A program made the translations under genes and the position numbers. From positions 558,001 to 622,000 of the forward strand of contig NZ_PGEN01000001.1 of NCBI RefSeq assembly GCF_002797435.1: DNA of 64,000 nucleotides, given 5' to 3'. Below the pieces are notes generated by a model that was not told the DNA's origin, did no database searches, and was given only the letters and a program-made list of their open reading frames with translations. This document shows positions 1 through 32,168 of this stretch, piece after piece. This DNA is from Sphingomonas koreensis (GTDB lineage: Bacteria; Pseudomonadota; Alphaproteobacteria; Sphingomonadales; Sphingomonadaceae). How positions within the stretch are numbered: the first letter of the stretch is position 1; every line of letters begins with the position of its first letter.

Positions 1-833
1 GTGCCGCAGGCGTGAAGCTCCACGCCCCCGCGCCATCGGCGGTGGTGGTGCCGATCGCCGTGCCGTTGTTGTAGATGGTGATCGTGGCATTGGCCTCGGC
101 GCCCGTCCCCGATAGCGTCGGGGTGGTGTCGTCGGTGACGCCGCCATTGCTCACGCTGCCCAGCACCGCCCCGACATTGTCGGCGATATCGCCGATCGTC
201 GGCACCGCCGGCGCGCTGGTGTCGATGGTGATCGCATAGGCAGCCGATTGCGCGCTGGCATTGCCCGCGGCGTCGGTCGCCGAGACGGTGAAGCTATGCG
301 CACCCGGCGGCAGTGCCGCGGGCGTGAAGCTCCACGCCCCCGCGCCATCGGCGGTGGTCGTGCCGATCGCCGTGCCGTTGTTGTAGATGGTGATCGTGGC
401 ATTGGCCTCGGCGCCCGTCCCCGACAGCGTCGGGGTGGTATCGTCGGTGACGCCGCCATTGCTCACGCTGCCGAGCACCGCCCCGACATTGTCGGCGATA
501 TCGCCGATCGTCGGCACCGCCGGGACGCTGGTGTCGATGGTGATCGCATAGGCAGCCGATTGCGCGCTGGCATTGCCCGCGGCGTCGGTCGCCGAGACGG
601 TGAAGCTGTGCGCACCCGGCGGCAGTGCCGCGGGCGTGAAGCTCCACGCCCCCGCGCCATCGGCGGTGGTCGTGCCGATCGCCGTGCCGTTGTTGTAGAT
701 GGTGATCGTGGCATTGGCCTCGGCGCCCGTCCCCGACAGTGTCGGGGTGGTATCGTCGGTGACGCCGCCATTGCTCACGCTGCCCAGCACCGCCCCGACA
801 TTGTCGGCGATATCGCCGATCGTCGGTACCGCG
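1..833 (-). repeat. 312-bp near-identical tandem repeats coding for 104-aa Ig-like domains
   Basis: The same sequence recurs with an exact 312-bp period. The gtgaagct text begins at 12, 324 and 636, and the units differ at only a handful of positions (for example ctatgc/ctgtgc in the codons for the HSF segment). The array has about 2.7 units in view and continues past the left edge. The homology ends near 833, where the sequence diverges into the 83-aa repeat type. The period is a multiple of three, so copy-number change keeps the adhesin in frame. Confidence 0.93.
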
Positions 834-2095
834 GGCGCCAGGGAATCGATCACGATGCTGGCGGGTGGCGATACATTGCCGACGGCATCGGCCGCCGTCG
901 CGATCACCGTCGTATTGTTGGGGATGGGGCTAGCGGGTGTATAGCTCCAGTTACCCGAGCCGTTCGCGGTGGCGGTCGCGTCGACATCGCCATCCCCATC
1001 GAGATCAAGCCTGACGGTCGCGCCTGCTTCGGCCGTGCCGGTCAGCACGTCTCCGCGGCTGGGATTGATCGTCGGGGCAGGCGGCGCAAGGCGATCGACC
1101 ACAACGCTGCCCGGAGGCGAGACATTGCCGACGGCATCCGTCGCCGTCGCGGTCACCGTGGTACCATTGGCAACGGGGGTCGCGGGCGTATAGGTCCAGT
1201 TCCCCGTCCCGTTTGCCGTCACCGTGGCATCCACAGTGCCGTCATTGTTGAGATCGAGGCGAACCGTCGCGCCGGCCTCCGCCGTACCCGCGATCACACT
1301 GCCGTTGGTTGGATTGATGACGGGCGCAGCCGGCGCTGCGGCATCGACGGTGACGGTGGTCGGCGGCGAGACGTTGCCGGCGGCGTCTGCCGCCGTCACC
1401 CGTACCGTCACACCATTTGCAAGCGCGGTGGTCGGGGTGAAGGTCCAGTTCCCCGATGCATTGGCCGTGGTCGTCCCATCGACGCTTCCGTCGCCATTCA
1501 CGTCGATGCGGATGGTCGCACCGGCCTCTGCCGTGCCCGTCAGTTCCCGGCCATTGGTCGGCGCAACGGTGGGTGCTGCAGGAGGCGTCGTATCAACCGG
1601 CGGGCCGCCGGGGTTGGAGCCGCCGCCACCCCCACCGCCACCGCCACCCGCCGCGGCTGCCACGCCGCCGCCAACAAGCAACGCGCCCAATCCGGCGAGC
1701 AGCCCGCCGCTAAGGCCCCCGCCCGCAGCCGCGCCCGATGACAAAGGCTCGAACGAATAGCCAAGCGCCTCTACGGAGTTGTCGGTAGGGAGATGACACG
1801 AACGCTCGCTCAACGCAGCGCGCCATTGTCCTCCCTCCCCTGGCTCGACAAAGACCACTTCAGGGATCGTTTCAGCGGGACAGTTGAAATAGCGATCGAG
1901 CCGCACCGTCGTGCCGTCGACGAACCGCAAGATGAGGTCATCCCCCTCTCGCACCATTTCCGCAAGCTCGCTGCGCGCAGCCGTAACCTTGATCCGCGCC
2001 GCATCTTCTATGGGTATAGTGGCATTCTTCTGTTGCACCAGGTGAGCTTCGACAGCTCCAGCTTTACGAGGCGTGATTTCGATACGCTTTTCCAT
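1..2095 (-). CDS. BapA-prefix giant adhesin with Ig-like tandem repeats (N-terminal part, runs off left edge)
   Basis: A large surface adhesin, probably for biofilm attachment. Only the first ~698 residues are in the window. It starts at ATG 2095 (MEKRIEITPRK), preceded by an AGGGGA Shine-Dalgarno about 7 nt upstream. Residues ~1-130 resemble the BapA/Bap/LapF prefix-like domain that opens such adhesins (a charged beta-rich head with EIVFVEP-like text). A Gly/Ala-rich hydrophobic stretch with a poly-Gly run follows at ~135-165. Next come three 83-residue Ig-like repeats (motifs GTAEAGAT, NGTGNWTYTP, DAVGNVSPP), then a longer 104-residue Ig-like type repeated nearly identically to the edge. 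There is no classical signal peptide; the family is exported by type I secretion, with the signal at the missing C-terminus. The transporter is not in the window. Family assignment is from pattern recognition; the repeat structure is directly visible. Confidence 0.85.
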   Translation of the reverse strand, partial: MEKRIEITPRKAGAVEAHLVQQKNATIPIEDAARIKVTAARSELAEMVREGDDLILRFVDGTTVRLDRYFNCPAETIPEVVFVEPGEGGQWRAALSERSCHLPTDNSVEALGYSFEPLSSGAAAGGGLSGGLLAGLGALLVGGGVAAAAGGGGGGGGGGSNPGGPPVDTTPPAAPTVAPTNGRELTGTAEAGATIRIDVNGDGSVDGTTTANASGNWTFTPTTALANGVTVRVTAADAAGNVSPPTTVTVDAAAPAAPVINPTNGSVIAGTAEAGATVRLDLNNDGTVDATVTANGTGNWTYTPATPVANGTTVTATATDAVGNVSPPGSVVVDRLAPPAPTINPSRGDVLTGTAEAGATVRLDLDGDGDVDATATANGSGNWSYTPASPIPNNTTVIATAADAVGNVSPPASIVIDSLAPAVPTIGDIADNVGAVLGSVSNGGVTDDTTPTLSGTGAEANATITIYNNGTAIGTTTADGAGAWSFTPAALPPGAHSFTVSATDAAGNASAQSAAYAITIDTSVPAVPTIGDIADNVGAVLGSVSNGGVTDDTTPTLSGTGAEANATITIYNNGTAIGTTTADGAGAWSFTPAALPPGAHSFTVSATDAAGNASAQSAAYAITIDTSAPAVPTIGDIADNVGAVLGSVSNGGVTDDTTPTLSGTGAEANATITIYNNGTAIGTTTADGAGAWSFTPAA
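836..1583 (-). repeat. Three diverged 249-bp (83-aa) Ig-like repeats
   Basis: The attgcc text in the AGNVSPP-coding segment recurs at 875, 1124 and 1373, an exact 249-bp spacing. Each unit encodes TNG..xxGTAEAGATxRxDxxxDGxVD, then NWT/SYTP and DAxGNVSPP. These copies are clearly more diverged from each other than the adjacent 312-bp units, which suggests an older array. Confidence 0.88.
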
Positions 2096-2741: not shown

Positions 2742-4424
2742 TCATGTGCCGGCGCTGCGCAGCGTGCGGACCGCGTGGTCCGCCGCCCGGACGGTGAGCG
2801 CCATGAAGGTGAGCGAAGGGTTCACGCACGAAACCGATGCCATCTGCGCCCCGTCGGTCACGTACAGGTTCGAGGCGTCGTGCGCCTGACTCCAGCTGTT
2901 GAGGACCGAGCTGCGCGGATCGGCGCCCATACGCGCGCCACCCATTTCGTGGATGGCGTCACCTGGAACATGCTCGCCTTCCCAGCTGCGCACACTGCCC
3001 AGACCCGCCGCCTTGAGCATCGCCTCGCCCTGCGTCCTGGCGTCGGCCATCATGCGCAGCTCGTTCTCACGAAAACGGACATCGAAGCGCATCAGCGGAA
3101 CCCCGAAGCGATCGACCTTGTCCGCGTGCAACGAAACCGAGTTGTCGCGATAGGGCAGGCACTCGCCAAACGCGCTGATATGGAACTTCCACGGCGCGTA
3201 CTTGCGCATGCCGTGCTTCATCGACGCACCGAAACCGACCGGGGGTGCAACATCGCGATGGGCGCCGCCCTGATAGCCATAGCCGCGCTTGAAGCCGAGA
3301 TTCTCGTCAGCACCGATATTGCGGAAGCGCGGAATGTAGATCCCGCCCGGGCGCCGGCCATATTCGATATACTCGCTCATGCCGGGGATTTCCCCTTCGA
3401 TACCGACGCGGAAGATGTGATCCATCACATATTTGCCGAGCGTTCCGCTTGAATCGAAATGGCTGCGGCCGCTGCCGGCTGCCCGCGAGTTCATCAGGAT
3501 CTGGGTCGAAGCCATCGCCGAAGCACAGAGGAAGACGAGGTCGGCGTTGACCACTTCCGCCTGACGGGTCCTGGCATCGACGAAGCGCACGCCGGTCACG
3601 CGCTTCCTCACCGGATCATATTCGAGATTGGTGACGACCGCATCGGACCGGAGCGTCAGCCGCCCGGTCGCGCGTGCAGCCGGCAGCGTCACCGCCTGGG
3701 TCGAGAAATAGGCGCCGAACGAGCAGCCATTGCCGCACTGATTGCGCATCTGGCACTTCGTCCGGTTCTGTTCGGGCTTGTCCTCGGTCAGGTTGGACAG
3801 GCGCGCGTTGATCAGCTTGCGGCCCGGGAACTGGGTCTCAAGCCGCTGCTTCACCCATTTCTCCGCGATGTTCATCGGCATCGGCGGCTGGAACTCGCTG
3901 TCGGGAAGCTGGGGCAGATTCTCGCGCGAGCCGGAGACGCCGATATAGTTCTCGACCTTGCTGTACCAGGGCGCGATATCGTCATAGCGGATCGGCCAGT
4001 CGCCATCGATGCCCTCGCGCTTGTTGGCCTCGAAATCGTCGGCACTCCAGCGGAAGCTCCACCGCCCCCAGATCAGCGACTTGCCGCCGACGGCACCGGG
4101 CCGGATCCAGAAGAACTTGCTGCCTTCGTCATGGGCATAGGGGTTCAGCCGGTCGTCATTGTAGAAACGCCGGTTGCTGGGCGCGACATAGCCGTTCTTT
4201 GCGATGAAATAGTCGCTCTCGATCAGCGGCTTGGGCATGATGTTGCGTGCCGGGACCTCATAGGCCGGCTTGCCGTCATAGGTGTAGTCCTCGCCATGCT
4301 CGACCATCACGCCGCGATCGAGCATCAGCACGCGCAGGCCCTTCTCGGTGAGTTCCTTCGCCGCAAAGCCCCCGCTGACGCCGGACCCGATGACGATCGC
4401 ATCAAACCTGTTGGTCGAAGCCAT
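2742..4424 (-). CDS. GMC-family FAD oxidoreductase, probable glucoside 3-dehydrogenase large subunit
   Basis: The 560-aa flavoprotein subunit probably oxidises the C3 hydroxyl of a glycoside to a 3-keto-glycoside in the periplasm. It has an N-terminal Rossmann FAD motif (VIGSGVSGGFAAKEL, ~10-25), a CGNGCSFGAYFSTQ segment, the HEMGGARMG segment near the C-terminus and the closing NPSLTFMAL. The start at ATG 4424 is chosen because the open frame upstream would run into the neighbouring isomerase gene. It has no export signal of its own. In fructose and glucoside 3-dehydrogenases the FAD subunit is carried out by a small subunit with a Tat signal, and such a small subunit is encoded at 5272-5841. 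It is the last gene of the 11465-2742 cluster. Substrate is inferred from the DUF1080 neighbour; gluconate or sorbosone-type dehydrogenase is the alternative. Confidence 0.86.
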   Translation of the reverse strand: MASTNRFDAIVIGSGVSGGFAAKELTEKGLRVLMLDRGVMVEHGEDYTYDGKPAYEVPARNIMPKPLIESDYFIAKNGYVAPSNRRFYNDDRLNPYAHDEGSKFFWIRPGAVGGKSLIWGRWSFRWSADDFEANKREGIDGDWPIRYDDIAPWYSKVENYIGVSGSRENLPQLPDSEFQPPMPMNIAEKWVKQRLETQFPGRKLINARLSNLTEDKPEQNRTKCQMRNQCGNGCSFGAYFSTQAVTLPAARATGRLTLRSDAVVTNLEYDPVRKRVTGVRFVDARTRQAEVVNADLVFLCASAMASTQILMNSRAAGSGRSHFDSSGTLGKYVMDHIFRVGIEGEIPGMSEYIEYGRRPGGIYIPRFRNIGADENLGFKRGYGYQGGAHRDVAPPVGFGASMKHGMRKYAPWKFHISAFGECLPYRDNSVSLHADKVDRFGVPLMRFDVRFRENELRMMADARTQGEAMLKAAGLGSVRSWEGEHVPGDAIHEMGGARMGADPRSSVLNSWSQAHDASNLYVTDGAQMASVSCVNPSLTFMALTVRAADHAVRTLRSAGT

Positions 4425-4444
4425 AACCCAATACTCCTGTACGG

Positions 4445-5275
4445 TCAGAAGCGCAGCGCGCGCAGCGTCTGGAAACTCGTGGTGACGTCGGGAAGATAGG
4501 GCGCGGGTGCCTGGTCGTTCTCGACGTAGAAATGGCGCACGCCCGCACTGCCCTTGCGCTTGAACAGCGCCGCGAAATCGATCGTGCCGGCGCCGACCGC
4601 GACCATCCCGCCATCGGCGCGCATATCCTTGACGTGATAGGCATAGAGCCGGCTCGACAGGCGGTCGATCAGCGCGCCCGCATCCTCGCCGGCCTTCACC
4701 GCCCAGAACAGGTCGAGCTCGATCTTCACCAGCGCGGGATCGGTTTCCCTGAGCAGCTGCTCGAACAGGCTGACGCCGCCCGGCTTCAGCGTGAATTCGA
4801 AATCGTGATTGTGGTAGGCGAAGCCGAGCCCCGCCTTTTTGAGCTCCGCAGCGAAGCGCGCGATGTTCGGCAGCGCCGCCTGCCATCCCGGACCGGTGCG
4901 ATGCTCGTCGGTCATGTAGGGCAGGATGATCGTGTCGGCACCGAGCGTCTTGGCGAGACCGACCTGCCGCTCGAACTGGCCGAGCAGCGCGTCATAGCCG
5001 ACATGGATCGACGGCGCCTTCAGGCCGAGCCGGTCGAGCGTCGCGCGCAGCATGACGGGGTCCATCGCGTCATAGCCACCCCCGCCGAACTCGACCTCGC
5101 GATAGCCGATGCGTGCGACCTGCTCGAGCGTGCCGGCCGGGTCCTTCGCGAAGATCTCGCGCAGCGTGTAGAGCTGAAGACCGATCGCCCTGCGCGGTGC
5201 GGCGGCGGCAGCGGGGAAACAGGCAAGCGCGGCGGCCGCCGCAGCGCCTGCGAGCACGGTTCTGCGTGCGATCAT
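4445..5275 (-). CDS. Exported sugar phosphate isomerase/epimerase-like TIM barrel
   Basis: This 276-aa AP-endonuclease-2/xylose-isomerase-like TIM barrel has a Tat-type leader (ARRTVLAG followed by an Ala-rich hydrophobic core), so it should act in the periplasm. The barrel holds the usual acidic/His metal positions: REVEFGG, NHDFEF, KIELDLFWAV, HVKDM. Such proteins epimerise, isomerise or dehydrate keto-sugars. In this cluster it probably acts on the 3-keto-sugar released by the DUF1080 protein. ATG 5275 overlaps the upstream stop (ATGA, 4 nt), indicating translational coupling. The exact reaction is not readable from sequence. Confidence 0.8.
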   Translation of the reverse strand: MIARRTVLAGAAAAAALACFPAAAAAPRRAIGLQLYTLREIFAKDPAGTLEQVARIGYREVEFGGGGYDAMDPVMLRATLDRLGLKAPSIHVGYDALLGQFERQVGLAKTLGADTIILPYMTDEHRTGPGWQAALPNIARFAAELKKAGLGFAYHNHDFEFTLKPGGVSLFEQLLRETDPALVKIELDLFWAVKAGEDAGALIDRLSSRLYAYHVKDMRADGGMVAVGAGTIDFAALFKRKGSAGVRHFYVENDQAPAPYLPDVTTSFQTLRALRF

Positions 5276-5841
5276 GCGGAATACACCTTGTTGATCTGAG
5301 AGTAGAGAAACTCGCCGTTATACTCGCCCGGCACCGGGAGATATTCGCGCTCCTGCGTCATCCCGATCTCGGACGTGTAATAGCCGACGATGACGAGCTG
5401 CCGGAAAGGCTCGAAGAACGCGTCGGCTCCAGGGAGCTGCCTGTTCATGGCCAGCGTGAGCAGCGCGTCCAGCTGCTCCGCTGTCGCCTTGGCCGCAGAC
5501 ACGCCATGGTCGCGCAGGCTGCGCGCCTCGATCGCATCCAGCCCCGCGATGATCGGCACCCGATCGCCCGGCAGCGCCCAGTCGGCCAGCATCTTCTCGA
5601 TGAAGTCCGGCACCCCGGCGGCGATCGCGCCTGGAGTATCGGTGGCCGGGATGACACGATCGCTCAGCGCAGACATCGCCGCGCGCTGCACGGGGGTGAA
5701 CACCCGAACGCTCGGCGGACCTTCGGAAATGGCGGGGATATCCGCCCCGCGCGGCGCGCCGGCCGCACGCGCGAGCGGCGCGTACAGCGATGCGCCGAAC
5801 ATGGCAGTGACGCCCGCCAGCGCGGTTCTGCGGTTGATCAT
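5272..5841 (-). CDS. Gluconate 2-dehydrogenase subunit 3-like small subunit with Tat signal
   Basis: The 189-aa protein has a twin-arginine leader (INRRTALAG, then a hydrophobic core ending ARA), followed by the small-subunit fold of FAD-dependent membrane/periplasmic sugar dehydrogenases (RVFTPVQRAAMSALSDRVIP, later QLVIVGYYTSEIGM). In this family it stabilises the GMC catalytic subunit and carries it across the membrane on the Tat pathway. The catalytic partner is at 2742-4424, with an isomerase gene between them. It overlaps the upstream DUF1080 gene and the downstream isomerase by ATGA, so the three are translationally coupled. Confidence 0.86.
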   Translation of the reverse strand: MINRRTALAGVTAMFGASLYAPLARAAGAPRGADIPAISEGPPSVRVFTPVQRAAMSALSDRVIPATDTPGAIAAGVPDFIEKMLADWALPGDRVPIIAGLDAIEARSLRDHGVSAAKATAEQLDALLTLAMNRQLPGADAFFEPFRQLVIVGYYTSEIGMTQEREYLPVPGEYNGEFLYSQINKVYSA

Positions 5842-6653
5842 TTGGCTTCTCCGGGCAGATCGTGATCGACGGCGGCTTCGGGCAGCGGGCGTACCCAGAT
5901 GTTGCGGAACGAGACCGGCGATCCGTGATCCTGCAGCTGAAGCGGCGCCGCATCGGGGTGCGCCTGATAGGCCGCGACCTTGCGCCACACCGTCGTGCCG
6001 AGCAGCGCCTGCCGGTTCTGCACCAGCACGCCGTTCAGGAACGCCGTGACATAGGCCGGGCGAAGCAGCTTGCCGTCCGCGGCAAAGCGCGGCCGCTCGA
6101 ATACGATGTCGTAGCTTTGCCACTCGCCGGGCTTGCGCGCAGCGTTCACCAGCGGCGGCTTCCACCCATAGGCGGCGCCGACCGTGCCGTCGGCATAGGT
6201 GGGGTTCCGATACCCGTCGAGGATCTGCACCTCGTAGCGCTGCATGAACCACACGCCGCTATTGCCGCGATCCTGCGACGTGTCCTTGGGCGGGTTGGGC
6301 GAACGGAATTCGAGATGGAGCTGGACGTCGCCGAAGCTCTGACGCGAAACAAGATTGTTGTCGCCGCCGCCCGCCGGACGCGGCGGCACCGTCATCACGC
6401 CGCCGGCGACGGTCCACGGCGCCAGCTGGCCTTGCCATGCGTCCGGGGACAGGACGATCGCGTCGGAGGGTGCGCCCCCCGGCAGCGTCGCTGGCGTCAC
6501 CACCACGGGCGCCGGGCGGTCCGCATCATGGACTCGCCATTTGCCGTCGGGCAGCATCGGCGTGTCCCTGAACCCCGGCTTTTCCTGCGCGGATGCGCCG
6601 GCGACCGCGATCCATGCGGCCATCAGGCAACCGGCCTTGCGCATGCGCGTCAT
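5838..6653 (-). CDS. Exported DUF1080 protein (3-keto-disaccharide hydrolase domain)
   Basis: This 271-aa protein has a Sec-type signal peptide ending GASAQ (~23) and a single DUF1080/PF06439 beta-jelly-roll domain. Recognisable elements are LHLEFRSPNPP, a GNSGVWFMQRYEVQILDG block and a C-terminal LQLQDHGSPVSFRNIWVRPL. Members of this family are described as 3-keto-disaccharide hydrolases/lyases that cleave the glycosidic bond after C3 oxidation. That fits the dehydrogenase genes beside it and is the main evidence for a keto-glycoside pathway. ATG 6653 overlaps the upstream stop. An in-frame ATG at 6644 is an alternative start. Confidence 0.87.
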   Translation of the reverse strand: MTRMRKAGCLMAAWIAVAGASAQEKPGFRDTPMLPDGKWRVHDADRPAPVVVTPATLPGGAPSDAIVLSPDAWQGQLAPWTVAGGVMTVPPRPAGGGDNNLVSRQSFGDVQLHLEFRSPNPPKDTSQDRGNSGVWFMQRYEVQILDGYRNPTYADGTVGAAYGWKPPLVNAARKPGEWQSYDIVFERPRFAADGKLLRPAYVTAFLNGVLVQNRQALLGTTVWRKVAAYQAHPDAAPLQLQDHGSPVSFRNIWVRPLPEAAVDHDLPGEAK

Positions 6654-7573
6654 GCCTCTCCTCCTTGTCGATCGATGGTGCGATAGGCCGCGATCAGGCG
6701 CTCCTCACCGGCGCGGCCGGGTATCGAATTGCCATGCTCCATGCCGATCACGCCGGTGTAGTTGCGTGCGCGGAGCCAGCGGACGATCGTCGCATAGTTG
6801 ATCTCGCCGGTCCCGGGCTCCTTGCGGCCGGGATTGTCGCCGAACTGGAGATAGGCGATCTCTGGCCAGCAGGCATCGAGCGCGGGGATCAGATTCCCTG
6901 ACTGGATCTGCTCGTGATAGAGATCGGCGAGGATCTTGACCGCCGGGCTGTTCACGCCACGCGCCACGGCATAGCCCTGCGCGATCGTCCGCATGTATAC
7001 GCCGGGGTGATTGGTGCGCGTGTTCAGCGGCTCCATCACCATCGTCAGCTTGTGCGGCGCCATGATGTCGCCGGCGCGGCGCATGACGTCGATGAGCCGC
7101 GCGGTCTGAATATCGACCGGCACGCGCGGATCGAGGAACCCGGTCACCACGGTCATCTGCGTCGCGTTCAGCCTTTTCGCGACATCGACCGCATTGCGGA
7201 TATCGGCAAGAAACGCCTCGCGCTCGCCATCGTCGTTGCCGCCGAGCAGCGGCCGCGACTGTGCCCATTTCGGCATGCTCGCGACGAACACGCCCATGCG
7301 CATGCCGCGCTGGGCCAGCGCCCGCGCCATCCGCACTTGCTCGTCGACCGGACGGCCCGCGGCTTCATTGTCTTCCCACGCCCGGAAACCCTGATCGGCG
7401 GCGAAGGCGATCTGCTCGATCAGCCCGCCCCGGCTCGCGAAACTGCCCTCGTGCGGCGCATAAGCGAGCGAGAAACGGGCGGCATTGGACGCGGACTCGC
7501 GCGCGCCCGCCAGCGCTGCGAGCGGCAGCGCCGCCCCTCCCGCAAGCAGGCTTCTGCGCGCGATCGGCGGCAT
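6650..7573 (-). CDS. Exported hydroxypyruvate-isomerase-like TIM barrel
   Basis: This 307-aa protein has a Tat-like leader (ARRSLLAGGAALPLAALAGA), then a xylose-isomerase-like TIM barrel. Motifs resembling the Hyi family include MVMEPLNTRTNHPG, ILADLYHEQI and a C-terminal GVIGMEHGNS. It is the second exported barrel of the cluster, so two successive isomerisation, epimerisation or dehydration steps may occur in the periplasm. The ATG at 7573 shares one base with the cytochrome stop (TGATG); a GTG at 7576 is an equally coupled alternative. Substrate is inferred only from context. Confidence 0.78.
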   Translation of the reverse strand: MPPIARRSLLAGGAALPLAALAGARESASNAARFSLAYAPHEGSFASRGGLIEQIAFAADQGFRAWEDNEAAGRPVDEQVRMARALAQRGMRMGVFVASMPKWAQSRPLLGGNDDGEREAFLADIRNAVDVAKRLNATQMTVVTGFLDPRVPVDIQTARLIDVMRRAGDIMAPHKLTMVMEPLNTRTNHPGVYMRTIAQGYAVARGVNSPAVKILADLYHEQIQSGNLIPALDACWPEIAYLQFGDNPGRKEPGTGEINYATIVRWLRARNYTGVIGMEHGNSIPGRAGEERLIAAYRTIDRQGGEA

Positions 7574-7956
7574 CACTTTGCGCTCTCGGCCTTCAGATAG
7601 GCGATGATCGCGGCGCGCTTCGCCGGATCGGGCGTGCCGATCGGCATCCGTGTTCCAGGAACCTTCTTGGACGGATTGGCAAGGAAGGCGTCGAGCGTCT
7701 TCTCATCCCATTTCAGCTTCGAGCCCTTGAGCGCCGCGGAATAGCTGACGCCCGGCACCGCCGCGGCAGGTTTGCCGATAATCCCGTAGAGATTGGGGCC
7801 GAGACCGTTCTTGCCGCCCTTGTTGGCGGTGTGGCAGGCGCGGCAGGCAGCAAAGGCTGCGGGCGCCCCGCTGGTCTGCGCAAAGCTGGGCGCGAGCGCC
7901 GCGCCCAATGCCGCCAGCGCCACCGCTCCCGTCGCCACACCCGCTACCAACTTCAT
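7573..7956 (-). CDS. Periplasmic class I cytochrome c
   Basis: The 127-aa monohaem cytochrome c has a signal peptide ending SFAQ, one CRACH haem site near residue 38 and a Met ligand in GTRMPIG. The fold (NGLGPNLYGIIG, KVPGTRM, AIIAYL at the C-terminus) matches small cytochromes of the c552/c550 group. It is the likely electron acceptor of the GMC dehydrogenase, linking glycoside oxidation to the respiratory chain. The ATG at 7956 follows a GGGAGAG ribosome site. The gene lies 43 nt after the reductase gene and is coupled to the downstream isomerase. Confidence 0.9.
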   Translation of the reverse strand: MKLVAGVATGAVALAALGAALAPSFAQTSGAPAAFAACRACHTANKGGKNGLGPNLYGIIGKPAAAVPGVSYSAALKGSKLKWDEKTLDAFLANPSKKVPGTRMPIGTPDPAKRAAIIAYLKAESAK

Positions 7957-7999
7957 CTCGTCTCTCCCAATCGCTTGCTTCTCTCGGTGACGGGCCGCC

Positions 8000-9166
8000 T
8001 CATCCGCGGCCGATCGCGGTCCACTTCTCATCTGATGCTGCATTGGCGGCGACCGTCTCAACGAAGCGCATCGTGCGCAGCCCATCGGCGAGGCCCGGGA
8101 ACCAGCCCTCCGTGCCCGGCGCGATCTCGGCTCCGGGAGCTCCGCCCCGAACCGCAGTCGCAAAGGCGCGGTAGATATTGGCAAAGGCCTCCAGATACCC
8201 TTCCGGATGCCCCGCAGGGGTCCGGGTCAACGCAAGGGTACTGGGGTCGAGACCTGGGGCGCCGGTTCGCAACAGCTCCGCAGGCTTGTCGAGCCAGCGC
8301 AGGGTCAGCGTGTTCGGCTCCATCTGAGACCATTCGAGTCCGCCGAGCTCGCCATGGATGCGCAGCCTCAGCCCATTCTCCTCGCCCGCGGCGACCTGGC
8401 TGGCCTTGAGCACGCCCCGCGCACCGCCCTCGAAGCGGAGCAGCGCACTCACATCGTCGTCCAGCAGCCGCCCGGGCACATGCGTGGTCAGCTCGGCACA
8501 GACTGCTTGCGCGCGCAGGCCCGAGACATGCTCGGCAAGCTGGAAAGCGTGGGTCCCGATATCGCCCAGGCATCCGCCGATGCCCGCGCGGGCGGGGTCG
8601 GTGCGCCATTCGGCCTGTTTCTGGCCGTCCCGGTCGATCGGCCGGCTGAGCCAACCTTGCAGATACTCCGCCTGTACCAGTCGGATCGCGCCGAAATCGC
8701 CGCGCGCGACCCGAATGCGCGCTTCCTCGACCAGCGGATAGGCGGAATAGGTGAAGGCCAGCGCAAACAACCGTCCGCTTGCCTTCACGGAACGTTCGAT
8801 GGCTTCGGCCTCGGCGACGCTCATCGCCATCGGCTTTTCGCACAGCACGTGAAAGCCGGCTTCGAGCGCGGCGATCGCCACCGGCGCATGGAGGTGGTTG
8901 GGCGTGACGATCGCAATCGCATCGACCCGTTCTTCCGGCAGCAGCGCCCGCTCGCGCTCCACCAGCTGCTGGAACGTGCCGTAGACGCGCTGCGGATCGA
9001 GCCCGAGCGCCTCACCGGTCCGCGCGTTGCGGCCAGCATCGGTGCTGAACGCGCCTGCGGTCATTCGCCACTCGCCGTCGATCGCGGCGGCAATGCGATG
9101 AACGGCGCCGATGAACGCGCCCTCCCCCCCGCCGACCATGCCGAGCCGAAGTGGCTGCCGCGCCAT
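8000..9166 (-). CDS. Gfo/Idh/MocA family oxidoreductase
   Basis: This 388-aa cytoplasmic NAD(P)-dependent sugar oxidoreductase has an N-terminal Rossmann domain (LGMVGGGEGAFIGAVHR), the family's EKP motif (LCEKPMAM, ~120) and the catalytic D..TH pattern in GDIGTHAFQLAE. It has no signal peptide. In a 3-keto-sugar pathway it would reduce the imported keto-sugar, regenerating an aldose, or act on an inositol-like intermediate. The start at ATG 9166 gives the normal family length; the longer upstream frame overlaps the next gene. The downstream barrel gene ends only 2 nt before this start. Confidence 0.85.
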   Translation of the reverse strand: MARQPLRLGMVGGGEGAFIGAVHRIAAAIDGEWRMTAGAFSTDAGRNARTGEALGLDPQRVYGTFQQLVERERALLPEERVDAIAIVTPNHLHAPVAIAALEAGFHVLCEKPMAMSVAEAEAIERSVKASGRLFALAFTYSAYPLVEEARIRVARGDFGAIRLVQAEYLQGWLSRPIDRDGQKQAEWRTDPARAGIGGCLGDIGTHAFQLAEHVSGLRAQAVCAELTTHVPGRLLDDDVSALLRFEGGARGVLKASQVAAGEENGLRLRIHGELGGLEWSQMEPNTLTLRWLDKPAELLRTGAPGLDPSTLALTRTPAGHPEGYLEAFANIYRAFATAVRGGAPGAEIAPGTEGWFPGLADGLRTMRFVETVAANAASDEKWTAIGRG

Positions 9167-9168
9167 GC

Positions 9169-10218
9169 TCACAGCCCCAGCAGCTTGCGGATCGCGTCGC
9201 GGTCGGCGCCGCTTGCCGCGAAATCGTCGAACGGCCGCTCCGTCAGGCGGATGATATGATCGCGGATGAAGGGTGCACCTTCGCGCGCGCCATCCTCGGG
9301 GTGCTTGAGCGCGCATTCCCATTCGAGCACCGCCCAGCCGGTATAGCCATATTGCGCCAGCTTGCTGAAAATACCGACGAAATCGACCTGCCCGTCGCCA
9401 AGCGAGCGGAACCGGCCGGCGCGGTCCACCCAGCTCTCGTAACCGCCATAGACCCCGCTCCGCCCGGTCGGGTTGAACTCGGCATCCTTAACATGGAAGC
9501 ACGAGATGCGGTCGTGATAGCGATCGATGAAGTCGAGATAGTCGAGCTGCTGCAGCACATAATGCGACGGGTCGAACAGGATGCGCGCGCGCGGATGATT
9601 GCCGACCGCGGCAAGGAAACGCTCCCAGGTCGCGCCGTCATGAATATCCTCGCCGGGATGGATCTCGAACGCGCAATCGACGCCCGCCTCCTCGAACGCG
9701 TCGAGGATCGGCAGCCAGCGCCGGGCAAGCTCGGCGAACGCTTCCTCGACCAGCCCCGCCGGCCGTTGCGGCCACGGATAGACATAGGGCCAGGCAAGCG
9801 CGCCGGAGAAGGTCGCGTGCGCATTGAGCCCGAGATTGGCGCTCGCCTCCGCGGCAAGCTTGACCTGCTCCACCGCCCAGGCCTGACGCTCCGCAGGCTT
9901 GCCGTGAAGCTCGACCGGCGCGAACCCGTCGAACAACTGGTCATAGGCAGGGTGCACCGCGACGAGTTGGCCCTGAAGATGGGTCGAAAGCTCCGTCGGC
10001 TCGATGCCGTGGTCTGCGAGCCGGCCGCGCAGATCGTCGCAATAGGCCTTGCTCTCCGCGGCCAGCCTGAGGTCGATCAGCCGCGGGTCGCACGGGATCT
10101 GCACACCCTTGTAGCCAAGCTGCCCCGCCCATTTCGCGAGCCCGTCCAGCGTATCGAACGGCGCGGTGTCGCCCATGAACTGGGCAAGGAAGATCGCGGG
10201 GCCCTTCATCGCGGTCAT
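9169..10218 (-). CDS. Cytoplasmic sugar phosphate isomerase/epimerase-like TIM barrel
   Basis: The 349-aa xylose-isomerase-like barrel has no export signal. Metal-binding segments are visible: CAFEIHPGEDIHDGATWE, ILFDPSHYVLQ, CFHVKDAEFN and AVLEWECALK. This is the long IolE/IolH-like type commonly paired with a Gfo/Idh/MocA dehydrogenase, as here at 8000-9166. It probably handles a keto-sugar or inosose-like intermediate after import. ATG 10218 overlaps the permease stop (ATGA). The longer open frame upstream lies inside the permease gene and is not coding. Confidence 0.85.
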   Translation of the reverse strand: MTAMKGPAIFLAQFMGDTAPFDTLDGLAKWAGQLGYKGVQIPCDPRLIDLRLAAESKAYCDDLRGRLADHGIEPTELSTHLQGQLVAVHPAYDQLFDGFAPVELHGKPAERQAWAVEQVKLAAEASANLGLNAHATFSGALAWPYVYPWPQRPAGLVEEAFAELARRWLPILDAFEEAGVDCAFEIHPGEDIHDGATWERFLAAVGNHPRARILFDPSHYVLQQLDYLDFIDRYHDRISCFHVKDAEFNPTGRSGVYGGYESWVDRAGRFRSLGDGQVDFVGIFSKLAQYGYTGWAVLEWECALKHPEDGAREGAPFIRDHIIRLTERPFDDFAASGADRDAIRKLLGL

Positions 10219-11465
10219 GCGGCGGCTCCCTGCTTGCTGTCGTCGCGGAACAGAAGCTGGAACAGCACGGTGATGACCGCCGCAGCGATCGCCGGATACC
10301 ACCACATCTGCTGCCAGTCCGCGATCGTCGGCACCGCGGGCAGCTGGGCGTAGAGCAGCCCGCCGATCTGCGAACCGAGCAGCATACCGACGCCATAGGT
10401 GAACAAGGTCAGCATCCCCTGCGCCTGGGCGTTGACCCCCTTGGGCGTGGCGATGGTACCGGTGTAGATTGCGCCGGCGACGAAGAAGAAGTCGTAGCAG
10501 ACCCCATGCAGCGCCACGCCGAGATAGATGGCCCAAAGCGATGCGCCGCCATCGCCAATCGCGAACAGGGCGTAGCGCAGTGCCCAGGCGGCCATGCCCA
10601 CCAGCAACAGCGGCTTCACACCGAACCGGCGGTAGAGCCACGGCATCGAGAACATGAAGGCCAGCTCGGACATCTGCCCGATCGACATCGTACCCCCGAC
10701 ATTGGTGATGCCCGCCGCACCGATATAGGCCGAAGCATAGGCGTAATACATCGCCAGCGGGATCGAGATCAGCGTCGCGCAGATCACGAAGATCAGATAG
10801 GAGCGCTGGCGCATCAGGCCGAACGCCTCGACGCACAGCACCTGGCGAACCAGGCTCTCGTCGCTCGGCGCGTCGGGCTCGATCGCGGGAAGCGTCAGGC
10901 TGTAGATGCCGAGCGCGATGGACACGACCGCCGCGACGCGGAAGATCTCCGGACTTGCCGACAGCGCCGCCCAGCCGATGATCAGCCCGGCCACGATCCA
11001 GCCGAGCGTGCCGAATGCGCGGACGAAGGGGAAACGGTCATCGCGTTCGCCCAGGCTCTTGAGCGCGATCGTGTTCGCGAGGCCGACGGTCGGCATGTAG
11101 AGGATCATGTAGCCGAACAGCACCCAGACGAAGGTGCCGCCGCTCTCCGGCGTCAGCAGCGCCGGCAGCGCCAGCAGGATCGCACCGCCGAGGAGGTGGA
11201 GGATCACCATCAGTGCCTTGGGGCTGAAATAGCGGGTCGCCGCCATGCCGAGCAGGAAGGATCCGGCGATCGAGGCGATCGGGCCGACCGAAAAGGCGTT
11301 GGCGATCAGGTTGCCAACCCCGACCGTCTGCATCACCAGCCCGAGCGTGACCGCCCAGGCGCCCCAGACGAAGAATTGCATGAACATGAGCGCGCTCAGC
11401 CGCGCCATGAGCATTGCCGATACCGGATGCGAAGCGACATTCTGCGCTCCATGGGCCGTGGCCAT
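10215..11465 (-). CDS. MFS transporter, nucleoside:H+ symporter (NupG-like) type
   Basis: The 416-aa inner-membrane protein has about 12 hydrophobic segments. The first helix carries MQFFVWGAWAVTLGLVMQ, typical of the nucleoside:proton symporter group that also includes carbohydrate importers. It is the first gene of the minus-strand cluster, so it probably imports the product of the periplasmic enzymes. It starts at ATG 11465 after a GGGAGGGG ribosome site. The promoter is divergent from the LacI gene: a TAAAAT -10-like hexamer (11549-11554, minus strand) lies just upstream of the palindromic operator at 11529-11546. Confidence 0.85.
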   Translation of the reverse strand: MATAHGAQNVASHPVSAMLMARLSALMFMQFFVWGAWAVTLGLVMQTVGVGNLIANAFSVGPIASIAGSFLLGMAATRYFSPKALMVILHLLGGAILLALPALLTPESGGTFVWVLFGYMILYMPTVGLANTIALKSLGERDDRFPFVRAFGTLGWIVAGLIIGWAALSASPEIFRVAAVVSIALGIYSLTLPAIEPDAPSDESLVRQVLCVEAFGLMRQRSYLIFVICATLISIPLAMYYAYASAYIGAAGITNVGGTMSIGQMSELAFMFSMPWLYRRFGVKPLLLVGMAAWALRYALFAIGDGGASLWAIYLGVALHGVCYDFFFVAGAIYTGTIATPKGVNAQAQGMLTLFTYGVGMLLGSQIGGLLYAQLPAVPTIADWQQMWWYPAIAAAVITVLFQLLFRDDSKQGAAA

Positions 11466-11528: not shown

Positions 11529-11546
11529 GATGTAAAGGATTACATC
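11529..11546. promoter_or_regulatory. LacI-type operator in the divergent MFS/LacI intergenic region
   Basis: A perfect inverted repeat, GATGTAA-AGGA-TTACATC, lies between the divergent permease and LacI genes. A -10-like TAAAAT on the minus strand sits immediately upstream of it, so a bound repressor would block the permease operon. The even spacer is as in LacI-family operators, though these usually have a central CG. Assignment to the neighbouring regulator is inferred. Confidence 0.7.
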
Positions 11547-11589: not shown

Positions 11590-12588
11590 ATGCCGACGAT
11601 CATCGACGTCGCCGCGGTCGCGGGCGTCTCCACTGCCACGGTTTCGCGCGTGTTGAGCCAGCCCGAGCGGGTGGCGGAAGCGACGCGCAAGCGCGTGCTC
11701 GAGGTGGTTCAGTCGCTGGGCTATGCCCCGAATGTCGCGGCGCGGACGCTGCGCACGTTGCGGGCCGCCAAGATCCTGCTGACGGTGCCCGACATCTCCA
11801 ACCCCTTCTTCGCCAGCATCATCCGCGGCGCCGAGGAAGCGGCGCGCGACGCGGGCTATGCGGTGGTGGTCGGCGACACCCGGCACGACCCGCAGGTCGA
11901 GGATCAATATGCCGAGATGCTCTCGCGCCGCGAAGTCGACGGGCTCATCTTCCTCGGCCACCGCCTGCCCGACAATCTGAGCCCGCTCCTGTCCCGGCCC
12001 GGCATCGCCGCGCCGGTCGTGAACGGCTGCGAATACAGCCCCGACCTCGGCGTCCCCAGCGTACATATCGACAATGCCGCAGCGAGCAGCGATGCCATCG
12101 AGCATCTGGTCGGCCTTGGCCATCGCGATATCGGCATCGTCACCGGCCCGCTCATCAGTCCGATCAGCCGCGACCGTCTTTCTGGCGCGATGGAGGCTGC
12201 CGAACGCCACGGGCTGAGGGATCGTCTGCAGGTCCGGAACGGCGACTATTCGGCAAAGCTGGCGTTCGAACTGGCCGGCGATCTGCTCGAGCAGAACGTC
12301 ACCGCGATCTTCTGCTTCAGCGACGAAATGGCGATGGGCGCGATCAGCGCGATCGGCGCGGCCGGCCTGACCTGTCCCGGCCATGTCTCGGTCGTCGGCT
12401 TCGACGATCTCCCCACCGCCCGCTTCTTCCAGCCCGCGCTCACCACGATCGCCCAGCCAAAGGGACTGATCGGGCAGCGAACGGTCGAATTGCTGGTCGA
12501 GATCCTGCGCGATCCGCAAAGTCCGATCCGCCAGATCACCCTGCCCCACGAACTCGTCGTCCGCGACAGCACCGGGCCGCTTCCCTAG
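11590..12588 (+). CDS. LacI-family transcriptional regulator of the keto-glycoside cluster
   Basis: The 332-aa repressor has an N-terminal helix-turn-helix (IIDVAAVAGVSTATVSRVL, ~4-22), a hinge helix (AARTLRTLRA) and a periplasmic-binding-protein-like sensor domain (DISNPFFASIIRGAEEAA, FCFSDEMAMGAI, VVGFDDLPTARFF). It is divergent from the nine-gene catabolic cluster, with an 18-bp palindrome between them, so it very likely represses that cluster until a pathway sugar binds. Its TAG stop shares the tetranucleotide CTAG with the convergent histidine kinase stop, leaving no room for a terminator between the two genes. Confidence 0.93.
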   Translation: MPTIIDVAAVAGVSTATVSRVLSQPERVAEATRKRVLEVVQSLGYAPNVAARTLRTLRAAKILLTVPDISNPFFASIIRGAEEAARDAGYAVVVGDTRHDPQVEDQYAEMLSRREVDGLIFLGHRLPDNLSPLLSRPGIAAPVVNGCEYSPDLGVPSVHIDNAAASSDAIEHLVGLGHRDIGIVTGPLISPISRDRLSGAMEAAERHGLRDRLQVRNGDYSAKLAFELAGDLLEQNVTAIFCFSDEMAMGAISAIGAAGLTCPGHVSVVGFDDLPTARFFQPALTTIAQPKGLIGQRTVELLVEILRDPQSPIRQITLPHELVVRDSTGPLP

Positions 12589-13946
12589 CGCGCCAGCCGC
12601 AGCTCGACCAGCAATCCGCCTTCGGGATGATTGCGGAGGGTCAGTTCGCCGCCGGTCGCGCGCGCCTGCGCCTGGGCGATGGTAAGGCCGATGCCGGTTC
12701 CGAGCGTGGTGTCCTGCCCCTCGCCCCGGACGAACGGTTCGAACGCGCGCGTGATCAGGTCTTCGGACATGCCCGGGCCGTGATCGCGAACGCTCACGAT
12801 CACGCCGCCCGCGTCGCGACGGCAGGCCAGGTCGGCGCCGCCGGCATAGCGGATCGCATTGTCGATCACATTGCCCAGGCACCGGGACAAGGCATCGGGC
12901 TTGACCCGTACCCGCGCGCCACAGCCCCCGGCGAAGCGGACCGGATGGCCGAACTCGGCAGCATCCTCGACCATCGCGGAAAGCATCGAATCGAGATCGA
13001 TCACCGACCATTGCTCGGCGCTTTCGCTGCTCCGCGCGAGGTCGAGTCCGCGCCGGACCATCGCCAGCGTCGCCGACAGGTCCGTGACCAGACGTTCGCG
13101 CAATGCGGCATCCTCGACCTGCTCGAGCCGCAACCGCAACCGGGTGAGCGGCGTCTGGAGATCATGGCTGATCGCCGCGAGCAGGCGGGTGCGCTCGCGC
13201 AGTCCTTCGCGGACCCGCTCCTGCATCGTGTTGAAGGTCGCCAGCGCCTGCCGCACGTCTTCCGGCCCGCGCTCAGGCACCGGATCGGCGTCGATCGAGC
13301 GGGCGAAGGCGCGCGAGGCCGCGGCGAGGCGACGGATCGGCGCCATGGCGATGCTGGCGACGAGGATCGACAACAGAGTGCTCGCGGCGATGATCAGGAC
13401 AAGGAAAAGCGGCTGGGTGATCGGGCTCGGCGGCGCTGCCAGCCGCGGCATGTCGACGCTGATGCGCACGGTCTCGCCGTTCGAATCCACGGTCAGCAGC
13501 CAGCATTCGGGCGAGATCGGGAACTTGAACCCGGCGACCCGCGGCTGCTTCCAGAAGGGCTCGTTCGAGATGCAGACTGACGGCGCGACCTTGAACAGTG
13601 CGAGTGCCATGCCCGCCGGCGCGCGTCCGCGCGCCATGTCGGTATGGGCCTGATCCGGCGTCCCGGGAAAGGCGACGCCGGGCGGGATCAGCCTGACGCC
13701 GATCAGCCCGCGATCGCGCAGCAGATCGAGCGTTCCCTGACGATTGCGCTCGAGGCGCCCGGCCACGTCGATCGCACTCAGCACGACCTGCTCGCCGCGC
13801 CAGCGCTGATAGTCGGCCTGCCTTACCTGATCGGCGACGAACAGCGCGGCGATCGCGGCGCACGAGATACCGATCGCCAGGATCAGCGCGATGCGCCCTG
13901 CAAGAGACAGGGCAAATCGCTGCAGGCCGCGCCAGGCGGCGATCAT
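12585..13946 (-). CDS. Sensor histidine kinase (partner of the adjacent OmpR-type regulator)
   Basis: The 453-aa membrane kinase has TM1 at ~18-38, a periplasmic sensor region at ~40-178 with two cysteines (C125, C148) that could form a disulfide or bind a ligand, and TM2 at ~180-200. A HAMP linker follows, then an H-box ISHDLQTPLTRLRL with phospho-acceptor His ~261, an N-box (NVIDNAIRYA) and a G-box (GTGIGLTIAQ). It overlaps the response-regulator gene by ATGA and lies at the end of the efflux operon, so it probably senses pump substrates or envelope stress and tunes pump expression. Confidence 0.92.
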   Translation of the reverse strand: MIAAWRGLQRFALSLAGRIALILAIGISCAAIAALFVADQVRQADYQRWRGEQVVLSAIDVAGRLERNRQGTLDLLRDRGLIGVRLIPPGVAFPGTPDQAHTDMARGRAPAGMALALFKVAPSVCISNEPFWKQPRVAGFKFPISPECWLLTVDSNGETVRISVDMPRLAAPPSPITQPLFLVLIIAASTLLSILVASIAMAPIRRLAAASRAFARSIDADPVPERGPEDVRQALATFNTMQERVREGLRERTRLLAAISHDLQTPLTRLRLRLEQVEDAALRERLVTDLSATLAMVRRGLDLARSSESAEQWSVIDLDSMLSAMVEDAAEFGHPVRFAGGCGARVRVKPDALSRCLGNVIDNAIRYAGGADLACRRDAGGVIVSVRDHGPGMSEDLITRAFEPFVRGEGQDTTLGTGIGLTIAQAQARATGGELTLRNHPEGGLLVELRLAR

Positions 13947-14680
13947 TCGAACGCCACGTTCGCCGCGAGCAGATAGCCCTGATTGCGCACGGTCAGGATC
14001 AGCTCGTCATTCCCGCCCACCCGAGCGAGCTTGTGGCGCAATCGGCTGATCTGGTTATCGATCGTGCGGTCGAACTCGGCGGTGGCGCCGCGGCTGGGAA
14101 ACAGGGCGGAGCGCGACAAGGGTTGATGCGGCGCCTCGATCAGCCGGTTCAGGATGGCGAACTCGGTCGAGGACAGCATGACCAGGCTGTCGTCAGGCGC
14201 GATCAGCCGGCGCTTGACCAGATCGAGCCGCCACGGGCCGAACCGCGCAACCTGTGCGCCGCCCGGCCGGGCCTCGACCCGGGGCCGCCGCCGCAGCAGG
14301 TTGCGCACGCGCGCGCTCAACTCGCGCGGCTCGAACGGCTTGGTGAGATAGTCATCGGCACCGAGCTCGAGCCCGAGCACCCGGTCGATCGCGCTGTCGC
14401 GCGCGGTGACCATGATGATCGCGCCCTCATGCCCTTCGGCACGAAGCTGGCGGCACAGGGTCAGCCCGTCGCCGTCGGGCAGGTTGAGGTCGAGGACGAT
14501 CAGGTCGACCGGCTCGCGCGCAAGCGTGGCGCGGACCTCGGCGACATTCCCGGCAGCGTTCAGTGCATAGCCCTCGCGGGCGAGCTGCTGGATCACCAGC
14601 TCGCGGATATCGGGATCGTCATCGACGACCAGCAGCCGCGGCACATGCCCGAAATCTTCAGCCAACCTGTCCTCCAGCAT
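13943..14680 (-). CDS. OmpR/PhoB-family response regulator
   Basis: The 245-aa protein has an N-terminal receiver (VVDDDPDIREL, phospho-acceptor D64 in VLDLNLPDG, conserved T in MVTAR, K in LTKPF) and a C-terminal winged-helix DNA-binding domain (FDRTIDNQISRLRHKL). ATG 14680 gives the normal family length. It lies 38 nt after the outer-membrane factor gene in the same direction and overlaps the kinase gene. It probably activates or represses the pump promoter upstream of 20361, forming a feedback loop within one operon. Confidence 0.93.
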   Translation of the reverse strand: MLEDRLAEDFGHVPRLLVVDDDPDIRELVIQQLAREGYALNAAGNVAEVRATLAREPVDLIVLDLNLPDGDGLTLCRQLRAEGHEGAIIMVTARDSAIDRVLGLELGADDYLTKPFEPRELSARVRNLLRRRPRVEARPGGAQVARFGPWRLDLVKRRLIAPDDSLVMLSSTEFAILNRLIEAPHQPLSRSALFPSRGATAEFDRTIDNQISRLRHKLARVGGNDELILTVRNQGYLLAANVAFE

Positions 14681-31178: not shown

Positions 31179-31190
31179 CGGGATCGGGAT

Positions 31191-32138: not shown

Positions 32139-32168
32139 ATCGGTCCTCTTATCAAAGGTGGCGGAGCT

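What the first reader, a model, noticed from the sequence alone, without database searches (positions are those of the whole stretch)
2742..11465. Nine-gene 3-keto-glycoside pathway with periplasmic and cytoplasmic arms
The cluster pairs a GMC dehydrogenase, a Tat-carrying small subunit and a cytochrome c (the set seen in glucoside 3-dehydrogenases) with a DUF1080 protein (3-keto-disaccharide hydrolase family). Two isomerase-like barrels carry export leaders, while a third barrel and a Gfo/Idh/MocA reductase do not. An MFS importer sits at the head of the operon under a divergent LacI gene. The layout suggests oxidation, non-classical cleavage and isomerisation outside, import, then reduction inside, with no ordinary glycosidase. 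The separate roles of the two exported barrels appear undescribed. Almost every junction is an ATGA or TGATG overlap.
Basis: partly seen in the sequence, partly recalled or inferred. Interest (0 to 1): 0.78.

Follow-up and report, generated by a model that had tools for sequence, protein, structure and literature searches.

The report
Operon breaking glycosides by oxidation, elimination
A Sphingomonas operon appears to break sugar-conjugates by oxidising and then eliminating them outside the inner membrane instead of hydrolysing them, and to finish the job inside the cell; the chemistry has recently been described in other bacteria, but one exported enzyme that travels with it still has no known job.

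Summary
In detail: nine minus-strand genes at 2742-11465 with a divergent lacI; five of eight junctions overlap. The 3-keto-glycoside reading is well supported, but the barrels' roles need changing. Barrel A (4445-5275, Tat-like leader) looks like a lyase, not an isomerase: its closest solved structures are 3-keto-beta-glucopyranoside-1,2-lyases, and it keeps all eight metal-site/catalytic residues of the Agrobacterium eliminase AtOGE. The leaderless barrel (9172-10218) is a full-length relative of Agrobacterium 2-hydroxy-3-keto-glucal hydratase AtHYD. Proposed scheme: oxidise and eliminate in the periplasm, import, hydrate and reduce in the cytoplasm. This is a split-compartment form of a published pathway and resembles the Caulobacter lactose locus. 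Barrel B (6650-7576), an exported hydroxypyruvate-isomerase-fold protein, is the undescribed part: it lies beside the dehydrogenase in 85 of 87 Sphingomonas genomes with a close dehydrogenase match. A relative forms small-subunit/GMC/B triads without barrel A, so I place it at the oxidised glycoside, as a keto-isomerase or epimerase. The DUF1080 gene is missing between B and A in 24 of those 85, and all 24 carry another DUF1080 gene elsewhere. A palindrome in the lacI-MFS gap, unique in the genome, is the likely operator. No activity was tested.

The parts
10215..11465 (-). MFS importer, Nuc_H_symport family (PF03825); proposed importer of the keto-sugar product
   Evidence: PF03825 E 1.4e-82; an ABC sugar importer stands in its place in the Palleronia locus; substrate inferred
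9169..10218 (-). leaderless AP_endonuc_2 barrel: proposed cytoplasmic 2-hydroxy-3-keto-glycal hydratase (AtHYD type)
   Evidence: 8ro4 '2-hydroxy-3-keto-glucal hydratase', E 1.5e-185, query 2-349 on chain 2-349; 74% identical to the protein in an A. tumefaciens MAG locus (L058)
8000..9166 (-). Gfo/Idh/MocA oxidoreductase without leader: proposed 3-keto-hexose reductase
   Evidence: PF01408, PF22725, PF02894; 45% identical to the Gfo next to GMC, OGE-like and HYD-like genes in L058, 51% to that of L052
7573..7956 (-). c-type cytochrome with Sec-like leader and a CRACH haem motif: proposed electron acceptor of the dehydrogenase
   Evidence: PF00034 E 2.3e-6; sequence
6650..7576 (-). barrel B: exported (twin-arginine leader) hydroxypyruvate-isomerase-fold protein; role undescribed, proposed keto-isomerase/epimerase acting on the oxidised glycoside
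5838..6653 (-). DUF1080 / 3keto-disac_hyd protein with Sec-like leader: proposed 3-keto-glycoside hydrolase or lyase
   Evidence: PF06439 E 5.9e-35; 4qhz E 5.7e-49
5272..5841 (-). dehydrogenase small subunit (Gluconate_2-dh3) with twin-arginine leader
   Evidence: PF13618 E 9.8e-32; N-terminus
4445..5275 (-). barrel A: exported (twin-arginine leader) AP_endonuc_2 barrel, proposed Mn-type 3-keto-beta-glycoside 1,2-lyase (OGE/AL1 type)
2742..4424 (-). GMC flavoprotein: proposed glycoside 3-dehydrogenase catalytic subunit, exported together with the small subunit (inferred)
   Evidence: PF00732, PF05199; best solved relatives FAD fructose and glucose dehydrogenases; invariant C224, C230, C234, H492, N535 in 9 relatives
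11530..11545 (.). palindrome ATGTAA-N4-TTACAT in the lacI-MFS gap, candidate LacI operator
   Evidence: only site in the 4.4-Mb genome; present in 6 of 6 sphingomonad loci with lacI divergent from the MFS gene
11590..12588 (+). LacI-family regulator, divergent
   Evidence: PF00356 E 9.6e-19, PF13377 E 3.2e-35

Best explanation
A LacI-controlled operon for breaking glycosides by oxidation, elimination, hydration and reduction, with the steps divided between two compartments. Outside the inner membrane the GMC dehydrogenase with its small subunit oxidises the sugar at C3 and passes electrons to the cytochrome. The exported barrel A then removes the aglycone by metal-assisted beta-elimination, leaving a 2-hydroxy-3-keto-glycal; DUF1080 cleaves 3-keto-glycosides in parallel, probably those that barrel A handles poorly. 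The MFS carrier imports the glycal and/or the 3-keto-hexose. Inside, the AtHYD-like barrel adds water to the glycal and the Gfo enzyme reduces the 3-keto-hexose to a normal hexose. Barrel B works in the periplasm on the oxidised glycoside, moving or epimerising next to the ketone. Shown here by sequence: gene set, families, leaders as read by eye, site residues, conserved linkage. Inferred: every reaction, the direction and cargo of transport, and barrel B's role.
For: AtHYD relative over the full length, E 1.5e-185. Barrel A: AL1, BT1 and AtOGE are the top named solved relatives by fold and AtOGE by sequence; of the eight AtOGE residues named by Bitter et al. 2023 (PMC10628242, section read) H91, H155, H157, D188, H214, E252 are in 48 of 48 aligned relatives, E62 in 47, E186 in 46. 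An A. tumefaciens MAG locus (L058) has LacI, HYD, Gfo, exported OGE-like barrel, GMC, small subunit and cytochrome in a row, the operon type in which Bitter et al. showed elimination by AtOGE. PF06439 family for DUF1080; Price et al. [quoted passage not shown] An uncultured Caulobacter contig (L052) has that same order: MFS, barrel A, Gfo, HYD, cytochrome, GMC, small subunit. In 151 Sphingomonas genomes GMC and barrel A occur in the same 87, barrel B in 85 of them. Candidate operator unique in the genome and conserved.
Against: No activity, substrate or localisation was measured. Barrel A is only about 25-30% identical to the characterised lyases. In 6 of the 87 genomes the best hydratase match lies more than 12 kb from GMC or on another contig, and 5 of 92 genomes with a hydratase match lack a close GMC match. 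AtOGE prefers beta-glucosides, whereas the Caulobacter DUF1080 gene is needed on the beta-galactoside lactose, so a simple split by anomer is not established. Which compound crosses the membrane is a guess from the leaders.
Confidence: 0.78

Rival explanations
1. Barrel B is a periplasmic C4-epimerase of 3-keto-glycosides (YcjR-like), turning galacto- or gulo-configured 3-keto sugars into gluco-configured ones before cleavage.
Confidence: 0.25
2. Barrel B is a 2-keto/3-keto glycoside isomerase that returns spontaneously formed 2-keto-glycosides to the 3-keto form that the lyase can use.
For: Hyi-family chemistry moves a carbonyl to the next carbon (recalled; NCBIfam lists 2-oxo-tetronate isomerase among its relatives). 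Bitter et al. 2023 describe spontaneous 3-keto to 2-keto conversion and a 2-keto C-glucoside that the eliminase does not use (passages). Barrel B relatives occur in small-GMC-B triads without barrel A.
Against: The published isomerisation concerns C-glucosides; need for it on O-glycosides is not shown. Score far below the Hyi curated cut-off (123.6 against 353.45 bits).
Confidence: 0.28
3. DUF1080 is the main glycosidic cleaver (net hydrolysis in the periplasm, importing a 3-keto-hexose), and barrel A plus the hydratase form a secondary or rescue route.
For: Fitness data for the Caulobacter DUF1080 gene. 24 of 24 genomes that lack DUF1080 between B and A carry another DUF1080 at E <= 1e-40, 8 of them within 12 kb, so the function seems to be wanted.
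Against: Barrel A is never missing where GMC is present (87 of 87), whereas the in-operon DUF1080 is missing in 24 of 85. The Agrobacterium operon works on a 3-keto-beta-glucoside with AtOGE, AtHYD and Gfo, and its relative L058 shows no DUF1080 in the 21.7 kb held.
Confidence: 0.3
4. The dehydrogenase is for an unrelated sugar or alcohol (fructose, gluconate, sorbose) and the neighbours are accessory.
For: The nearest solved relatives of the GMC protein are FAD fructose and glucose dehydrogenases.
Against: Linkage to relatives of an eliminase, a glycal hydratase and a 3-keto-disaccharide hydrolase in one operon; linkage conserved in 87 of 87 genomes for barrel A.
Confidence: 0.05

Closest known systems
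Agrobacterium tumefaciens GlycDH/AtOGE/AtHYD/Gfo glycoside operon (Bitter et al. 2023, PMC10628242; sections 7, 8 and 14 and passages read)
   Same: GMC dehydrogenase with Tat small subunit, OGE-type barrel with the same eight site residues, AtHYD-type hydratase, Gfo reductase in one operon
   Different: Window adds DUF1080, barrel B and an MFS carrier in the operon; barrel A and hydratase are clearly split by leaders here (the OGE-like protein of the A. tumefaciens MAG L058 also begins with a leader-like stretch)
Caulobacter crescentus lacABC / DUF1080 lactose locus (Price et al. 2022, PMC9007349; passages read)
   Same: GMC, cytochrome and small subunit, DUF1080, transporter, two 'sugar epimerases', reductase; judged through an uncultured Caulobacter contig (L052), where the two epimerases are barrel A and the hydratase
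   Different: No barrel B seen on that 8.4-kb contig; C. crescentus itself was not fetched
Gut 3-keto-beta-glucopyranoside-1,2-lyases AL1 (Alistipes) and BT1 (B. thetaiotaomicron), PDB 8tcd, 8tcr, 8tct (paper not held; titles only)
   Different: 24-25% identity; the gut systems' dehydrogenases are, as recalled, Gfo-type rather than GMC
Hydroxypyruvate isomerase family (Hyi; PDB 1k77, 3ngf)
   Same: Fold and metal-site pattern of barrel B (E182, D218, Q244, E280; H221, R251)
   Different: Exported, in a glycoside operon, and far below the family's curated score
E. coli YcjR 3-keto-D-glucoside 4-epimerase (PDB 6wn6)
   Same: Same superfamily as barrel B; acts on 3-keto-glycosides
   Different: Lower fold score, His instead of Gln at the third ligand position

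Membership tests
Oxidation-elimination-hydration-reduction glycoside pathway (AtOGE/AtHYD type) | GMC glycoside 3-dehydrogenase with Tat small subunit | tested here: met
   PF00732/PF05199 and PF13618; twin-arginine N-terminus; C3 regiochemistry itself not testable here
Oxidation-elimination-hydration-reduction glycoside pathway (AtOGE/AtHYD type) | OGE-type barrel with the Mn site and catalytic His | tested here: met
   All eight residues present in the window protein; 46-48 of 48 aligned rows each
Oxidation-elimination-hydration-reduction glycoside pathway (AtOGE/AtHYD type) | 2-hydroxy-3-keto-glucal hydratase relative | tested here: met
   8ro4, E 1.5e-185, 348 aligned residues
Oxidation-elimination-hydration-reduction glycoside pathway (AtOGE/AtHYD type) | Gfo reductase in the same operon | tested here: met
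   45% identity to the Gfo of L058
Oxidation-elimination-hydration-reduction glycoside pathway (AtOGE/AtHYD type) | Release of aglycone and 2-hydroxy-3-keto-glycal | not testable with these tools
   Needs purified enzymes
LacABC/DUF1080 lactose-type locus (Caulobacter) | GMC + cytochrome + small subunit + DUF1080 in one locus | tested here: met
LacABC/DUF1080 lactose-type locus (Caulobacter) | Transporter, two AP_endonuc_2 barrels and reductase alongside | tested here: met
   Met with a third barrel (B) in addition
LacABC/DUF1080 lactose-type locus (Caulobacter) | Growth on lactose depends on it | not testable with these tools
   No growth data for this strain
Hydroxypyruvate isomerase (for barrel B) | Score above the curated NCBIfam cut-off (TIGR03234) | tested here: not met
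   123.6 bits against 353.45
Hydroxypyruvate isomerase (for barrel B) | Fold and ligand pattern Glu-Asp-Gln-Glu | tested here: met
YcjR 3-keto-glycoside 4-epimerase (for barrel B) | Closest relative among solved structures | tested here: inconclusive

The most novel reading that the evidence does not exclude
Barrel B is a new periplasmic enzyme step of the 3-keto-glycoside pathway: a Tat-exported keto-sugar isomerase (or epimerase) that acts on the freshly oxidised glycoside and keeps it in the form the lyase can cut, while the reactive 2-hydroxy-3-keto-glycal, not a finished sugar, is what the cell imports and hydrates inside.
Probability: 0.35. Interest if true: 0.68.

Novelty: new variant of a known kind. 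Interest (0 to 1): 0.5.

Why it matters
It turns a vague 'isomerase' operon into a testable compartment scheme, and offers an answer to a question that Price et al. 2022 left open (the fate of the 3-keto-galactose and the roles of the two 'sugar epimerases' at the Caulobacter lactose locus): by homology they would be an eliminase and a glycal hydratase. It also singles out one exported enzyme, barrel B, conserved with the dehydrogenase across a genus and, as more distant relatives, in other phyla, for which my literature searches found no description (searches returned nothing; the library lacks most subscription papers). Sphingomonads live on plants and in soils rich in glycosides, so the operon may matter for how they use plant glycosides; that last point is inference.

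Tried and rejected
Both exported barrels as isomerases: rejected for barrel A, whose nearest solved relatives are lyases. The leaderless barrel as inosose dehydratase (NCBIfam IolE, 66.4 bits against a cut-off of 290): rejected for the AtHYD match.

DUF1080 loss read as 'DUF1080 is dispensable': not kept, because 24 of 24 genomes without it between B and A carry another DUF1080 at E <= 1e-40, against 3 of 61 with it (two divergent, one a second close copy). The contrast depends on the threshold: with the looser Pfam model several genomes that have the in-operon copy show further, more distant family members. Fisher tests ignore relatedness of the genomes and are not quoted as probabilities.

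Strict coupling of B to A: holds in the genus sample, not beyond. In 196 genomes of the order, B (E <= 1e-60) is in 14 and A in 9, both in 8, B without A in 6, A without B in 1. I looked at three of those six B loci: two are small-GMC-B triads, one has B next to DUF1080 beside sulfatase and GH43 genes. Of 70 more distant GMC loci, 19 have an A relative, 20 a B relative (only 3 of these above 250 bits), 11 both, 15 DUF1080, 28 hydratase plus Gfo; none shows all nine, and contig ends and the 10-kb flank limit these counts.

Operator: the alphaproteobacterial locus L073 has lacI divergent from an MFS gene but no such site, and sphingomonad loci with a distant lacI at the other end (L020, L027, L033, L037) have none.

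Papers: Nasseri et al. 2024 and Kastner et al. 2024 were not seen (only PDB titles and citations). Bitter 2023: sections 7, 8, 14 and passages. Kastner 2026 (PMC13273386): parts 1 and 3 of 3 and passages. Price 2022 and PMC9765024: passages only. Searches returned nothing; 12, 13, 17, 38, 66 and 73 were read as listings.

Errors of mine: the 'in-operon' count of 36 used a strand-blind distance band and is wrong; replace it. Searches took the first-listed rather than the best query per ORF; one search recounts (it adds the hydratase of L029).
Full report
What is there. Nine genes lie on the minus strand at 2742-11465, with a LacI gene divergent at 11590-12588. In order of transcription: MFS carrier of the Nuc_H_symport family; AP_endonuc_2 barrel without leader; Gfo/Idh/MocA; cytochrome c; barrel B; DUF1080 (PF06439, named 3-keto-disaccharide hydrolase); small subunit; barrel A; GMC. 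Five of eight junctions overlap by 4 nt; the others are gaps of 2, 43 and 20 nt. Leaders were read by eye, not by a program. The window lies in a 4.40-Mb single-contig genome; its nearest named protein relatives are from Sphingomonas.

The leaderless barrel. Residues 2-349 align to residues 2-349 of PDB 8ro4, named 2-hydroxy-3-keto-glucal hydratase (AtHYD of A. tumefaciens by its title), E 1.5e-185. The protein in an A. tumefaciens MAG locus (L058) is 74% identical. This barrel has no leader, so hydration is placed in the cytoplasm; that placement is inference.

DUF1080. PF06439 E 5.9e-35; nearest solved relative 4qhz, a putative glycosyl hydrolase. Price et al. 2022 (passages) cite BT2157 as a 3-ketotrehalose hydrolase and show fitness defects of a Caulobacter DUF1080 gene on lactose. 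Residues E115, R129, N131, E141, Q143 and D146 are in 26 of 26 aligned relatives.

The dehydrogenase. GMC with invariant H492 and N535 and three cysteines C224, C230 and C234 in nine aligned relatives. The 6/4 spacing recalls the [3Fe-4S] site of FAD fructose and glucose dehydrogenases, which are its nearest solved relatives; the cluster assignment is recalled, not tested.

Linkage. In 151 genomes of the genus the GMC protein (E <= 1e-200) is in 87, barrel A (E <= 1e-60) in the same 87 and always within 12 kb, barrel B in 85 of those 87 and always within 12 kb, and the hydratase in 92, of which 81 of the 87 lie within 12 kb. The two genomes without B are a fragmented 84%-complete assembly (G007) and G325; there the gene order leaves about 420 bp between DUF1080 and Gfo. 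DUF1080 lies between B and A in 61 of 85 (spacing 2205-2477) and is absent there in 24 (spacing 1408-1572). All 24 have another DUF1080 at E <= 1e-40, 8 of them within 12 kb, against 3 of the 61. So the two barrels stay together while DUF1080 can be supplied from elsewhere. Beyond the genus B also occurs without A (6 of 14 B genomes in 196 of the order). Two of the three such loci that I looked at are small-GMC-B triads, which places B next to the oxidation step.

Other loci. Four of ten sphingomonad loci carry close relatives of all nine genes (L028, L029, L030, L034; L035 passes the loose thresholds but its B match is only 55 bits). S. parapaucimobilis plasmid NZ_CP155753 has all nine by annotation. 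Xanthomonas sacchari plasmid NZ_CP010410 has the nine kinds by annotation, with a distant barrel B. In Palleronia an ABC sugar importer stands where an MFS is found elsewhere. The A. tumefaciens MAG (L058) has LacI-HYD-Gfo-OGE-GMC-small-cytochrome, with no DUF1080 or B detected in the 21.7 kb held. The uncultured Caulobacter contig L052 reads MFS (partial, 59 bits)-A-Gfo-HYD-cytochrome-GMC-small. [quoted passage not shown] C. crescentus itself was not fetched.

Regulation. The 16-bp palindrome ATGTAA-N4-TTACAT at 11530-11545 occurs once in the genome; the backwards-read control finds none. It is in 6 of 6 sphingomonad loci with lacI divergent from MFS, and in a Halomonas locus (twice) and an Alteromonas locus; 9 of 108 fetched loci match, one being the window's own site. 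About 0.12 sites are expected by chance in 1.96 Mb at 50% GC. L073 has the divergent arrangement but no site.

Mechanism. Oxidation at C3 in the periplasm; elimination by barrel A, or cleavage by DUF1080; import; hydration; reduction. The steps are inferred from relatives. AtOGE, AtHYD and Gfo of Agrobacterium are reported to take 3-keto-phlorizin towards glucose in one pot, the hydratase role there being called preliminary (section 7). For barrel B I commit to an isomerase or epimerase on the oxidised glycoside (about 0.55 together), slightly favouring keto-shift over C4 epimerisation, because its fold and its Gln ligand are Hyi-like and because spontaneous 3-keto to 2-keto shifts that disable an eliminase have been described for C-glucosides.

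Novelty. The core is a known kind; the split of lyase and hydratase between compartments together with DUF1080, an MFS and an exported Hyi-like barrel is a variant; barrel B's role is not described in what I could search.

Noticed in passing
window 2-2095, minus strand: Open-ended ORF of at least 698 aa with BapA prefix-like and many bacterial Ig-like domains, with near-identical 312-bp tandem repeats at 1-836: a large surface adhesin just downstream of the operon.
   Followed up: partly
window 25680-34340, minus strand: A second carbohydrate cluster: carboxylesterase, GH127-family, FGE-sulfatase-type and TonB-dependent receptor genes.
   Followed up: no
window 12585-14680, minus strand: Genes that read like a sensor kinase and response regulator pair next to the lacI gene (judged from the translations only).
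   Followed up: no
window 16116-19244, minus strand: AcrB-type RND transporter gene.
   Followed up: no
L110:6708-9997 and L111:4570-7898: Small-subunit/GMC/barrel-B triads without barrel A or hydratase nearby, in a different family of the order: possibly a minimal oxidase-isomerase unit.
   Followed up: partly
L109:9149-10914: Barrel B relative directly followed by DUF1080, beside GH43 and sulfatase genes.
   Followed up: partly
24 of 85 Sphingomonas genomes: The in-operon DUF1080 is missing between B and A and another, 47-54% identical DUF1080 is present elsewhere in each of them.
   Followed up: partly
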